From Solirubrobacter deserti (lineage in GTDB: Bacteria > Actinomycetota > Thermoleophilia > Solirubrobacterales > Solirubrobacteraceae), in assembly GCF_027587175.1 (NCBI RefSeq), contig NZ_JAPCID010000002.1, forward strand, positions 1-64,000: a stretch of 64,000 nt of DNA, given 5' to 3'. Within the stretch, counting starts at the first letter, position 1; each line of letters opens with the position of its first letter. The position numbers were made by a program, and so were the translations under genes. Positions 35,101 through 37,399 of this stretch are shown in pieces. The notes beneath the pieces were generated by a model. The model was given only the letters and a program-made list of their open reading frames with translations. It was not told the origin of the DNA and did not search any database.

Positions 35101-35988
35101 GCGCTGGCGTCCGCGACCAAGAAGCTCGAGAGCACGGGCCAGACGAGCTGGACCTTCGGGAAGATCCCGAAGGTCGTCGCGCTGCCCGGCACCAACCAGA
35201 CCGTGCGCGCGTACCCGTCGCTGGTGGACGAGGGCGAGACGGTCGGCGTGCGCGCGCTGGAGAGCCCGCAGGCGCAGGCGCTGCACATGCGCGCCGGCAC
35301 CCGGCGCCTGCTGGCGCTGACGACGCCCTCTCCCCTGCGCCAGTACCAGGGCTCCAAGCTGGGCAATGCCGCGCAGCTCGTGCTGATCGAGGCGCCACAC
35401 GGCTCCCCGCGCGCGGTGCTGGAGGACGCGGCCAGCGCCGCGATCGCCGCGCTGCTCGACCGCGCCGGCGGGCCCGTGTTCGACGCGGAGAGCTTCGAGC
35501 GGCTGCGCCAGTACGTCGCCGGGCACGTCGCGGACGAGACGGCGAAGATCGTCGCGGCCGTGGTGAAGATCATCCAGGCGGCGCGGGATGTGCGCGCGGA
35601 GCTCGACCAGCTGCGCGGCGCGGCCTTCGAGCCCGTCCGCCGCGACGTGGCGCAGCAGCTCGGCCGGCTGGTGTTCCCCGGCTTCGTCACCCCCACCGGC
35701 GCGCACCGGCTCGCGGACGTCGAGCGCTACCTGCGCGGCGCCGAGTGGCGCCTGCAGCGGCTGACCAAGAACGCGGCCGTCGACCGCGACCGGATGCTCG
35801 CGCTCAACGAGCTCGAGCGCGCCTACGACGCGGCGCTGCGGGCCCAGGTCGGGGCGAACCCCGAGCTCGCCGACGTGCCGTGGATGCTGGAGGAGCTGCG
35901 CATGAGCCAGTTCGCGCAGTCCGTCGGCACCAAGGGCCACGTCACCGCCCGGGGCATCCGCCGCATCCTCGACGAAGCCGCCCGTTAG
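32170..35988 (+). CDS. hrpA: ATP-dependent DEAH-box RNA helicase HrpA
   Basis: 1272 residues, full family length. Motif I GETGSGKTTQ; Ib TQPRRLAARTVA; II DEAHERS; III SAT; V NVAETSLTVPGI; VI QRKGRCGRVAEG. Then HA2 (winged helix/ratchet), OB-fold and the long C-terminal DUF3418 region (RPDLLTFTRELL.., LPGTNQTVRAYPSLVDEG). HrpA resolves stalled ribosomes and unwinds mRNA. Start GTG at 32170, 5 bases after the M48 gene, so probably co-transcribed. Nothing unusual in length or motifs. Confidence 0.97.
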   Translation: MGVLQARLPELTLQDEFRLEQRFKRLAKGDEKGQARLDADIAKAVLRFEQRRAAVPAVSYPEELPVSARREDLLAAIRDHQVVIVAGETGSGKTTQLPKVCLELGRGVRGTIAHTQPRRLAARTVAERIADELKVPMGSAVGYAVRFADKSGENTLLRLMTDGLLLAEIQNDRLLRRYDTIIVDEAHERSLNIDFLLGYLKRLLPQRPDLKVIITSATIDPERFARHFDDAPIIEVSGRTYPVEVRYREPDEDADQTDAIGDAVDELLREPPGDILVFLSGEREIRDTAEALEGRFRNVEILPLFARQSTAAQQRVWKPHKGRRVVLATNVAETSLTVPGIRYVVDPGTARISRYSARLKVQRLPIEPISQASADQRKGRCGRVAEGIAIRLFSEEDFEERPRFTDPEILRTSLAAVILQMAAIDLGDVEDFPFLDPPDRRQVRDGIALLQELGALDESGRTLTQIGRRLAALPIDPRMGRMVLEAAGLGCVDEVIVIAAALSIQDVRERPADQQAQADQAHARHADENSDFLAYWNLWRYLHEQRAELSANQFRKQAKGEFLHYLRIREWQDLVGQIRQAAKGVGIKANHVPAEPEQIHQAILAGLLSHIGLKDSGRREYTGARNAKFALWPGSGVKGQPAWVMVSELVETSRLWGRTVARIDPRWVEPLAGHLLKRTYDEPRWDRKRAQVVATERVTLYGLPIVAGRTVGYGQIDAALSRDLFIRRALVEGEWDTRHRFLADNQALVEEVEALEERARRRDILVDDQTLYDFYAARIPETVISGRHFDRWWRDERRVRPDLLTFTRELLINPTAAEDIAGRPDVWRQGDLELQLSYRFDPGSAHDGVTVHVPLKRLMALRPEGFEWLVPAMRAELIVALIRSLPKDVRKRLVPVPEVAASVLERLEPRKRPLLEALAAEIEAQRGVRIAPGDWDLSRLPNHLKMTFSVEDDEGRVVAAGQDLAAVREQVRPQLRRALASATKKLESTGQTSWTFGKIPKVVALPGTNQTVRAYPSLVDEGETVGVRALESPQAQALHMRAGTRRLLALTTPSPLRQYQGSKLGNAAQLVLIEAPHGSPRAVLEDAASAAIAALLDRAGGPVFDAESFERLRQYVAGHVADETAKIVAAVVKIIQAARDVRAELDQLRGAAFEPVRRDVAQQLGRLVFPGFVTPTGAHRLADVERYLRGAEWRLQRLTKNAAVDRDRMLALNELERAYDAALRAQVGANPELADVPWMLEELRMSQFAQSVGTKGHVTARGIRRILDEAAR

Positions 35989-35994
35989 CGACGG

Positions 35995-36096
35995 ACGACC
36001 CCGCTCCGTTGCGCTTGGTGTCCGCGACCGGCTTCGCCGGTGCGTGGCCACTTCGGCTTGGAGATCGCTTCGCGGATCTCCCGGTGGCGGGGTCGT
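35995..36096. other. structured intergenic element with TTC/TTCG-capped hairpins
   Basis: ACGACCCCGC (35995-36004) is the exact reverse complement of 36087-36096. Inside, ACCGGC-TTC-GCCGGT (36027-36041, extended by CGC/GCG with one bulge) and GGAGATC..GATCTCC (36060-36066 / 36075-36081, loop GCTTCGCG) form two further stems. This makes a closed multi-branch fold just after hrpA. It could be an elaborate terminator, a small RNA or a mobile palindromic element. Confidence 0.45.
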
Positions 36097-36144
36097 CGTA
36101 GCTTCACGCTGTCTGAGCGACCATGCCCAGCAGACGCGGAAGGC

Positions 36145-36195
36145 TCAGATACGCCAGCCCCAGCGCCAGCCGGCGCTGTCGATGCGGAAGCCCAT
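36145..36195 (-). CDS. tiny peptide gene (16 residues as read, possibly frameshifted)
   Basis: An ATG at 36195 preceded by a strong ribosome site (GGAGGG, 6 bases upstream) gives MGFRIDSAGWRWGWRI and stops. One extra base in the GGCTGGCGCTGGGG stretch would instead give a 30-residue peptide continuing ..LGLAYLSLPRLLGMVAQTA to a TGA at 36104-36106, which looks like a natural small hydrophobic peptide, so a 1-base deletion is suspected. It diverges from the broken SARP gene across a SARP-type box. Function unknown. Confidence 0.35.
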   Translation of the reverse strand: MGFRIDSAGWRWGWRI

Positions 36196-36248
36196 GACTG
36201 CTTCCCTCCGTAGTTGACTGCGATCAGTCTCCGCGGGGGCTACGCGGC

Positions 36249-36266
36249 GGCAAAGGCTCGGTAAAG
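36249..36266. promoter_or_regulatory. SARP-type direct-repeat box 1
   Basis: GGCAAAG and GGTAAAG are heptamers separated by 4 bases (11-base period), the spacing known for SARP (BTAD) operators. The box lies 10 bases before the SARP-like ATG and 53 bases before the divergent peptide ATG, so it could serve either promoter. Confidence 0.5.
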
Positions 36267-36276
36267 AGGCGCCGCG

Positions 36277-36768
36277 ATGGACTTCGCGATCCTCGGTCCG
36301 CTGCGGGTCGTGGGGCCGGACGGCGAGATCGAGCTCGGCGCGGGAGCGGAGCTCGAGCGCCTGACCGCCGAGCACCCGTACCGCGAGCGCTTCCACGCGC
36401 AGCTGATGCTTGCGCTCTACCGCGCCGGCCGCCAGGCCGACGCGCTCGACGCCTACCGCCGCGCCCGCCACGCGCTCGTGGAGGACCTCGGGCTGGACCC
36501 CGGCCCGGACCTCCAGCGCCTCGAAGCCCGGATCCTCGCCCACGACGTAAGCCTCACCGCTCGCTCACAGAAGGGGTCTGACCCTTCATCCTCGCCCGCG
36601 CCGGCGGCCGACACCCCGCCATTGCCGCTGCCGGCGACGCCGCTGCTCGGGCGCGAGGAGCACCTGGAGACGGCGGAGGCGCTGCTGGAGGACCCGGACG
36701 TGCGGCTGCTCCCGTCACCGGGCCGGGCGGCACCGGCAGCATCGGCCGGGGCGGCAAAGTCTCAGTAA
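36277..36768 (+). pseudogene. decayed SARP/BTAD-ATPase regulator
   Basis: The frame starts MDFAILGPLRVVGPDGEIEL, a perfect SARP N-terminus, but then jumps directly to the C-terminal part of BTAD (ERLTAEHPYRERFHAQLMLA.., LYRAGRQADALDAYRRARHALVEDLGLDPGPDLQRLEARIL). Most of the winged helix and the first BTAD helices (about 130-180 residues by family comparison) are missing. After TPLLGREEHLETAEALLEDPDVRL the ATPase P-loop appears only in another frame (VTGPGGTGS), showing a frameshift, and everything further is lost. A palindrome element (36570-36587) sits in the linker. Non-functional as a DNA-binding protein. Confidence 0.8.
36570..36587. repeat. REP-like palindrome, degenerate copy, in SARP pseudogene
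   Basis: GAAGGG-GTCTGA-CCCTTC; the core GGGGTCTGACCC matches the element at 61331-61373. It is translated in frame as QKGSDP. Confidence 0.6.
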
Positions 36769-36770
36769 AG
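36753..36770. promoter_or_regulatory. SARP-type direct-repeat box 2
   Basis: GGCAAAG-TCTC-AGTAAAG repeats box 1 with the same 11-base period; the surrounding 21 bases match 36246-36266 at 19 positions. It overlaps the stop of the SARP remnant and has no intact gene beside it that it would control (the cupredoxin gene ends here), so it is probably a relic of a lost promoter or a duplication scar. Confidence 0.4.
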
Positions 36771-36775
36771 CGACC

Positions 36776-37399
36776 TCAGCGCGTCGTGATTTCGGCCACC
36801 ATGCCGGCGGCTTCGTGGCCGCGCAGCGAGCAGTAGAGCGTGTACGTCCCGGCGGGGAGGTCGACCGCGAGCGTGCCCGACTCGCCCGGCGCGAGCGGGA
36901 GCTCGCCCAGGTCGCGCGCCGCCGCGTCGCGGACGGTCAGGTCGTGCTCGTCCTCGCCGCGGTTGTTGGCGTTGAACTCGACCCGGCCCGCCGCCAGCAG
37001 CCGGTAGGACGGCCGCACCGACCACTCGCGGATGTCCGTGAGGTCCACGTTGGTGCGCGACGGCAGCGGCGCCGGGGTGGCGGTGGCCACGGGCGTCGCG
37101 GTGGCCGTCGGGGTCGGCGTCGCTCCGGGCCTGGGGGTCGGCGTCGCCTGCGGACCGGGCTCGCCGCCCGGGGCGTCCGACCGCGGCGCGGGATTCGTGC
37201 TCGCCGGCGCGTCCTTGCGCGGCGCGGGCTTGGCCGGCGCCGGGCGCTTCTTCTTGGCCTTGACGCACGGCTGTTTGATCGGCACCGCGCTCGCCGCGCC
37301 GAGGCTGCTCGCGGCCGCACCGCACCGGCGCGGCTTGGCGTCCGGGGCCGGGTTGCCGCCGAGCCCGGCGAGCGTCAGCAGGATCGCGAGCCAGCTCAC
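36776..37399 (-). CDS. secreted cupredoxin-like protein with Pro/Ala linker
   Basis: 207 residues. Hydrophobic N-terminus (MSWLAILLTLAGLGGNPAPDA), long Lys/Pro/Ala/Thr linker (~40-115), then a cupredoxin domain (~118-207). Type-1 copper ligands are recognisable: His in EDEHDLTV, then Cys-His-Met in YCSLRGHEAAGM. It should bind one copper and transfer electrons outside the membrane. Its start overlaps the DUF1501 stop by 4 bases, so all three genes (DUF1800, DUF1501, cupredoxin) form one unit, an unusual partner for this pair. Confidence 0.85.
   Translation of the reverse strand: MSWLAILLTLAGLGGNPAPDAKPRRCGAAASSLGAASAVPIKQPCVKAKKKRPAPAKPAPRKDAPASTNPAPRSDAPGGEPGPQATPTPRPGATPTPTATATPVATATPAPLPSRTNVDLTDIREWSVRPSYRLLAAGRVEFNANNRGEDEHDLTVRDAAARDLGELPLAPGESGTLAVDLPAGTYTLYCSLRGHEAAGMVAEITTR

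What the first reader, a model, noticed from the sequence alone, without database searches (positions are those of the whole stretch)
36104..36195. Tiny divergent peptide gene beside the SARP remnant, probably with a 1-base deletion
A strong ribosome site precedes MGFRIDSAGWRWGWRI. Adding a single base would continue into a hydrophobic 30-residue peptide (LGLAYLSLPRLLGMVAQTA end). The length to the second stop is one base short of a multiple of three, as expected for a deletion. If intact homologues exist, this would be a SARP-linked small peptide family not described to my knowledge.
Basis: inference. Interest (0 to 1): 0.5.

Follow-up and report, generated by a model that had tools for sequence, protein, structure and literature searches.

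The report
Hidden micro-peptide gene beside regulator remnant
The tiny gene is complete at 16 amino acids and belongs to an apparently undescribed family of very small peptides in the soil bacterium Solirubrobacter, which share a regulatory DNA box with large regulators, exporters and a second family of tiny secreted-looking peptides and may form a peptide signalling circuit.

Summary
MGFRIDSAGWRWGWRI* (minus strand, 36195-36145) is complete. Relatives sit in the same place in other Solirubrobacter: two in S. taibaiensis (25, 24 aa), MGFKFGWKV in an unnamed species, MGWRN in S. phytolaccae. Unlinked copies occur in S. soli (21 aa) and, found by following the DNA box, in Ca. S. pratensis (MSWKF). 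Nearly all end G-[FWY]-[KR]-x. The "second frame" is the complement of a conserved sequence upstream of a second SARP that this species has lost.

Intact relatives carry two AfsR-like SARPs and an MFS transporter here; in the window SARP2 and MFS are deleted and SARP1 is a remnant. An 11-bp-phased direct repeat (CTTTRCC-N4-CTTTRCC) precedes micro-peptides, MFS genes and a second hidden 30-aa family, MKNIK...AEA|RATWT, whose signal-peptidase cleavage would free a pentapeptide. It also stands at SARP2's start.

Best reading: a SARP-linked micro-peptide/export regulon, possibly peptide signalling. The family is well supported. Signalling, and SARP as the box's reader, are inferred; an OmpR-type response regulator is a serious alternative reader. 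No expression data were available.

The parts
36145..36195 (-). Complete micro-peptide ORF MGFRIDSAGWRWGWRI* (16 aa)
   Evidence: family members at the same place in relatives; leave-one-out E 0.0049
36205..36209 (-). Shine-Dalgarno-like GGAGG of the micro-peptide
   Evidence: SD-like sites also precede the relatives
36249..36266 (.). 11-bp-phased direct-repeat box GGCAAAG-N4-GGTAAAG (CTTTACC-N4-CTTTGCC towards the peptide)
   Evidence: 14/14 to the consensus, 71 nt before the peptide ATG
36277..36768 (+). Remnant of SARP1 (163 aa): first ~20 residues joined to the second half of BTAD, then broken in the P-loop region
   Evidence: Pfam BTAD profile positions 83-146 only; intact orthologues of 898-901 aa
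36731..36775 (-). Relic of the promoter of a deleted MFS transporter gene, with a second box at 36753-36770
   Evidence: Aligned by eye with the MFS upstream regions of S. taibaiensis, G001 and S. phytolaccae
36118..36131 (+).
35999..36098 (-). Terminator-like long stem (GACGACCCCGC...GCGGGGTCGT) after the peptide, with a dispersed repeat in its loop
   Evidence: Folding energy -56 kcal/mol for 35995-36104, z -4.93; no T-run confirmed

Best explanation
The ORF is a complete micro-peptide gene of a Solirubrobacter family built from G-[FWY]-[KR]-x units (5-25 aa). It is one output of a regulon marked by the box CTTTRCC-N4-CTTTRCC, together with large AfsR-type SARPs carrying TPR domains, MFS exporters, and 30-aa Sec-type prepeptides that would release [RK][AC][ST]WT pentapeptides. 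Most likely mechanism (inferred): the wHTH of a SARP binds the box and switches on peptide and exporter genes; the peptides leave the cell or act inside it and feed back on the TPR domain, a peptide-signalling loop that works like RopB with its leaderless peptide or like Rap/Phr. In the window's species the SARP2 and MFS genes are deleted and SARP1 is broken, so this copy is an orphaned output: still intact, perhaps read by another regulator, perhaps decaying. Shown by sequence: gene family, synteny, boxes, deletions. Inferred: expression, who binds the box, export, signalling.
For: Family at the same syntenic place in the window species, S. taibaiensis (two copies, each with its own box), G001 and S. 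phytolaccae, and unlinked in S. soli. C-terminal G[FWY][KR]x end. A terminator-like hairpin follows the S. taibaiensis and S. soli copies. Box score 12/14 or more at 17 of 21 peptide, MFS and prepeptide upstream regions, shuffles 0.12%; 11 of the 15 regions not reached through the box. Following the box uncovered MSWKF* in Ca. S. pratensis and the 30-aa prepeptide family, the latter with pN/pS 0.35-0.58 in 7 of 8 pairs. SARP1 is AfsR-like with wHTH, BTAD and TPR. SARP target promoters with 11-bp-spaced direct repeats: PMC10936776, passages.
Against: No expression or binding data. The window species has lost both SARPs. The box also stands in other genera before secreted or membrane proteins, and beside an OmpR-type response regulator in S. 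soli and Ca. S. pratensis, so SARP may not be its reader. At SARP2 the box points away from the gene. The SARP1-like genes of S. soli and Ca. S. pratensis have no peptide beside them. The S. phytolaccae box is poor (9/14), and its peptide and that of G001 overlap the SARP2 stop codon. One prepeptide pair has pN/pS 0.93.
Confidence: 0.45

Rival explanations
1. The box is read by an OmpR-type response regulator conserved in the order; SARPs, MFS genes and both peptide families are members of that two-component regulon, and the peptides act in the envelope rather than as SARP ligands.
For: Box beside a response-regulator gene in S. soli and Ca. S. pratensis; box before secreted or membrane proteins in other genera; box kept at the peptide and at the C82 prepeptide in the window species after SARP loss.
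Against: Boxes cluster at the SARP locus (7 of 11 exact sites in G000, G001, G003, G004). The S. soli variant box occurs only at its SARP and its orphan peptide (pattern drawn from those two). Another SARP paralogue could equally read the orphan boxes.
Confidence: 0.35
2. The micro-peptides are short cationic aromatic antimicrobial peptides exported by the MFS protein, not signals.
For: W/K/R-rich cationic sequences; MFS exporters share the box.
Against: Five-residue forms (MGWRN, MSWKF) are very small for this; nothing here links this MFS family to peptides.
Confidence: 0.2
3. In this species the ORF is a silent relic left after loss of SARP1, SARP2 and the MFS gene; the family is real elsewhere.
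For: SARP1 broken, SARP2 and MFS gone.
Against: ORF, SD and a 14/14 box are intact in two assemblies of the species.
Confidence: 0.4
4. A one-base deletion broke a 30-residue hydrophobic peptide.
For: The length fits (92 bases).
Against: Homologues end in frame at the same motif; the second half matches a conserved element on the other strand; a second assembly is identical.
Confidence: 0.02
5. The peptides are minimal RiPP precursors modified by an enzyme encoded elsewhere.
For: Aromatic-rich sequences down to five residues, as in biarylitides (PMC13417212, start of abstract).
Against: No maturase recognised among the gene calls of the wide loci, which were mostly judged by eye.
Confidence: 0.07

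Closest known systems
RopB with its leaderless communication peptide (SIP/LCP) of Firmicutes (PMC10518010, passages)
   Same: Tiny leaderless peptide gene linked to a regulator of the TPR class; the regulator binds at the peptide's promoter.
   Different: Ours: phylum Actinomycetota, an AfsR-type SARP of about 900 aa, box of OmpR/SARP type, no demonstrated binding; peptide sequences unrelated.
RRNPP systems such as Rap-Phr (PMC10075063, passages)
   Same: Small Sec-type prepeptides whose C-terminal five residues could be the signal; TPR regulators.
   Different: Receptor far longer than 250-500 aa; prepeptides not adjacent to it; not Firmicutes; no shared receptor fold outside TPR tested.
AfsR-AfsS of Streptomyces (PMC10936776, passages)
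   Same: Large SARP with nucleotide-binding and TPR domains; promoter box of 11-bp direct repeats at the target.
   Different: Ours are 5-25-aa peptides divergent from the SARP; AfsS is larger and unrelated in sequence (recalled).
Biarylitide precursors
   Same: Five-residue genes that escape annotation (PMC13417212, start of abstract).
   Different: No P450 or other maturase recognised beside ours.

Membership tests
Solirubrobacter GPhiK micro-peptide family (defined here) | Short ORF with SD-like site ending G[FWY][KR]x | tested here: met
   the only one of 249 ATG ORFs in the window; the Ca. S. pratensis member ends SWKF, a variant
Solirubrobacter GPhiK micro-peptide family (defined here) | CTTTRCC-N4-CTTTRCC box upstream | tested here: met
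   14/14 for the window; 6 of 7 members reach 12/14, S. phytolaccae 9/14
RRNPP quorum sensing | Small propeptide secreted by the Sec route | tested here: inconclusive
   30-aa family looks Sec-type with AxA before the last five residues, no predictor run; the window peptide has no signal sequence
RRNPP quorum sensing | Receptor of 250-500 aa | tested here: not met
   SARP1 898 aa
RRNPP quorum sensing | Receptor with TPRs | tested here: met
   Pfam TPR_12 in SARP1 and SARP2 of relatives; absent from the window remnant
RRNPP quorum sensing | Propeptide gene next to receptor gene | tested here: inconclusive
   Met for the GPhiK peptide in four species; not met for S. soli and Ca. S. pratensis copies; no SARP recognised beside the prepeptides
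Leaderless communication peptide (LCP) | Secreted, reimported and bound by the receptor | not testable with these tools
   Needs mass spectrometry and binding assays
AfsR-type SARP (SARP1, SARP2 of relatives) | wHTH, BTAD, nucleotide-binding and TPR domains | tested here: met
   (AfsR 8k60, E 3e-53, over residues 2-558); below the NCBIfam AfsR equivalog cut-off (227 vs 1430 bits), so AfsR-like, not AfsR
AfsR-type SARP (window remnant) | Intact wHTH and BTAD | tested here: not met
   Only BTAD profile 83-146 remains
AfsR-AfsS circuit | SARP binds the target's direct-repeat box | not testable with these tools
   Box geometry matches (11-bp period), but binding needs EMSA

The most novel reading that the evidence does not exclude
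Solirubrobacter runs peptide-based cell-cell signalling through AfsR-type SARPs: a single direct-repeat box drives the SARPs, leaderless G-aromatic-basic micro-peptides of 5-25 aa, MFS exporters, and 30-aa prepeptides that signal peptidase trims to [RK][AC][ST]WT pentapeptides read by the SARP TPR domains. This would be an RRNPP-like communication system of separate origin in Actinomycetota, and could suggest what the TPR domains of large SARPs sense.
Probability: 0.27. Interest if true: 0.88.

Novelty: new variant of a known kind. Interest (0 to 1): 0.62.

Why it matters
The signal sensed by the TPR domains of large SARPs is, to my knowledge (recalled), not established. Here two hidden micro-peptide families and exporters share one regulatory box with such SARPs, which gives concrete candidate ligands and a testable circuit in a phylum whose known quorum signals are typically small molecules made by enzymes (PMC10075063, passage). 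It also shows that five-residue genes can be found through their promoters where sequence search fails.

Tried and rejected
Frameshift reading: rejected. Rfam search of 35950-36850 at E <= 1: no match. Pattern hits outside Solirubrobacter (G050, G134, G138, G159, G165, G183): 6 of the 11 genomes with a match, not counted as members. I read two of these loci: G159 MGFRI* has an SD-like site but no SARP was recognised nearby, and G183 did not look like a member; the other four were not read. The family model in 232 genomes of the order found significant hits only in G000, G206, G004 and G005; these sequences, or identical ones, are in the model. The prepeptide model in 396 genomes drawn evenly from the phylum: only G000 at E <= 0.001; in the 232 genomes of the order its weaker hits outside the genus (best E 7.4e-4, G172) were not followed. 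SARP paralogues of seven Solirubrobacter genomes: 46 places listed, 30 loci scanned for micro-peptides, none beyond those reported. Promoter -10 elements: no clear consensus for the peptide promoters (by eye). Literature: 'Solirubrobacter' with 'SARP' (5 papers listed, none relevant by title and abstract start); BTAD + small open reading frame + divergently + peptide (0); SARP + tetratricopeptide + signaling peptide + quorum sensing + actinobacteria (0); Solirubrobacter + peptide + regulator + genome mining (8 listed, none relevant by title and abstract start); RRNPP + Actinobacteria (4 listed); PMC12700828 has no mention of SARP, AfsR or Actinomycetota (find). So 'undescribed' means not found in these searches of an open-access subset. 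Structure prediction was not used: it could not test peptide binding.

Full report
Where it is. The window lies in a Solirubrobacter genome (G000) of the same species as Solirubrobacter sp. CPCC 204708 (L096; G206 is identical over the peptide).

The observation. On the minus strand GGAGG (36209-36205) precedes ATG at 36195 and MGFRIDSAGWRWGWRI*, ending at 36145. Another frame is open to 36104, 92 bases from the ATG.

The deletion is not supported. In the same place, divergent from the intact SARP1, S. taibaiensis has MGFKFDPANGFKFGPAQGWKYGFKI* and MGFKFSPADGWKMGWKMGVQGWRF*, G001 has MGFKFGWKV* (a longer in-frame start exists), and S. phytolaccae has MGWRN*. S. soli has an unlinked MGFKFGTVDGFKYGYKWGYKW*, followed by an overlapping ORF without an SD-like site, MTSSWKSSPSTWRLGFKV*. 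All of these end G-[FWY]-[KR]-x. In the window and 12 wide loci only these ORFs and in-frame variants of them carry that end; Markov controls give 0.1 per 64 kb, 0.03 with SD. Leave-one-out models recover the window peptide at E 0.0049 (next window ORF 2.1), the S. taibaiensis ones at 2e-8 and 7e-6, and S. soli weakly at 0.028. That element stands between HrpA and the next SARP in S. taibaiensis, S. phytolaccae, S. soli and G001, and in the window at 36118-36131.

What was lost here. In G001 and S. phytolaccae the order is HrpA (DUF3418), SARP2, peptide (opposite strand), SARP1, MFS (convergent), plastocyanin-like, DUF1501, DUF1800 (Pfam names from the window orthologues, and relatives). S. 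taibaiensis has the same, with SARP2 read by hand because the simple gene caller chose another frame. SARP2 proteins are 57-59% identical to S. taibaiensis SARP1. In the window SARP2 is absent, SARP1 is a 163-aa remnant with only half of BTAD, and the MFS gene is absent; in the own genome only weak MFS matches remain (best a 56%-identical 81-residue stretch). The box at 36753-36770 sits in a relic of the MFS promoter.

The box. CTTTRCC-N4-CTTTRCC has the 11-bp period described for SARP target promoters (PMC10936776, passages). Exact GGYAAAG-N4-GGYAAAG sites number 2, 3, 3 and 3 in G000, G001, G003 and G004; 7 of these 11 lie in this locus. Against one consensus, 17 of 21 upstream regions of peptides, MFS genes and prepeptides reach 12/14 or more; shuffles reach that in 0.12%. 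Six regions were reached through the box itself (Ca. S. pratensis peptide; three prepeptides; G001 and S. phytolaccae MFS). Of the other 15, 11 reach 12; the four that do not are the S. phytolaccae peptide (9), one G001 prepeptide (11) and two S. soli prepeptides (11 and 10). For MFS genes and prepeptides the best box starts 39-51 nt before the ATG, which suggests short-leader or leaderless transcripts (inference). In S. soli a variant box, drawn from its SARP and its orphan peptide, occurs nowhere else in that genome and in none of the six others searched.

Two predictions from the box. Reading beside boxes away from this locus gave, in G001, S. phytolaccae and S. taibaiensis, a 30-aa ORF: MKNIKVALTSAVLFVPVLLPTIAEARATWT* and kin. 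A model of these three found more copies in S. taibaiensis (a tandem pair), G001, S. soli (two, one of them at E 0.011) and the window's own genome at G000:C82:15132-15221, MRTIKVIATTTALTLPILLPAMAEAKATWT*, E 7.1e-9. All nine distinct sequences have an AxA signal-peptidase-like site followed by five residues, [RK][AC][ST]WT. pN/pS is 0.35-0.58 in seven of eight pairs and 0.93 in one pair with seven changes. In Ca. S. pratensis, where sequence search found no micro-peptide, one of two boxes is followed by an SD-like site, ATGAGCTGGAAGTTCTAA (MSWKF*) and a terminator-like inverted repeat; the other box lies between a two-component operon and a GYD-like protein.

Who reads the box. For the SARPs: boxes at SARP1 and SARP2, shared geometry, the S. 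soli variant. Against, or for another reader: in other genera of the order the same box stands before secreted or membrane proteins, and in S. soli and Ca. S. pratensis beside an OmpR-type response regulator gene (Pfam for the Ca. S. pratensis one), whose wHTH class also binds such repeats (recalled). At SARP2 the box points away from the gene. I therefore hold SARP as reader only somewhat more likely than not.

Function. Shown here by sequence: a gene family, a shared box, co-boxed exporters and prepeptides, and TPR-bearing AfsR-like SARPs. Inferred: that these form a peptide-signalling loop. The nearest working analogues are RopB with its leaderless peptide (PMC10518010, passages) and RRNPP systems (PMC10075063, passages). 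Membership in RRNPP fails on receptor length, and no SARP was recognised beside the prepeptides. Rivals are a two-component envelope regulon, cationic antimicrobial peptides, and, for this copy, a silent relic. Existence of the family I hold at about 0.85, the full mechanism at 0.45, the two-way signalling reading at about 0.27.

Limits.

Noticed in passing
G000:C82:15132-15221 (L205, L175), outside the window; relatives in L081, L082, L083, L202, L203, L204, L206, L207: Second hidden micro-peptide family of 30 aa, Sec-type, ending AxA-[RK][AC][ST]WT, behind the same box.
   Followed up: partly
window 36011-36082; L002-L007: About 70-bp double-hairpin element repeated around the genome, several copies directly after stop codons; in the window it sits inside a terminator-like stem.
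   Followed up: partly
window 36118-36131; L074 ~10778, L075 ~12612, L076 6272, L078 8632: Conserved CGACCATGCCC[GA]GC element between HrpA and the next SARP in five species; function unknown.
   Followed up: partly
L048, L049, L053, L058, L066-L068 (other genera of the order): The same direct-repeat box stands before a related-looking family of small secreted proteins ending in T-V/H-rich basic stretches.
   Followed up: no
L035:1501-1518 (G159, another genus): MGFRI* with a strong SD-like site and no SARP nearby; may be chance or a distant member.
   Followed up: no
G000:C117:5573-5590 (L031): Box copy between an MCP-like gene and a trigger-factor-like gene in the own genome; no micro-peptide seen.
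   Followed up: partly
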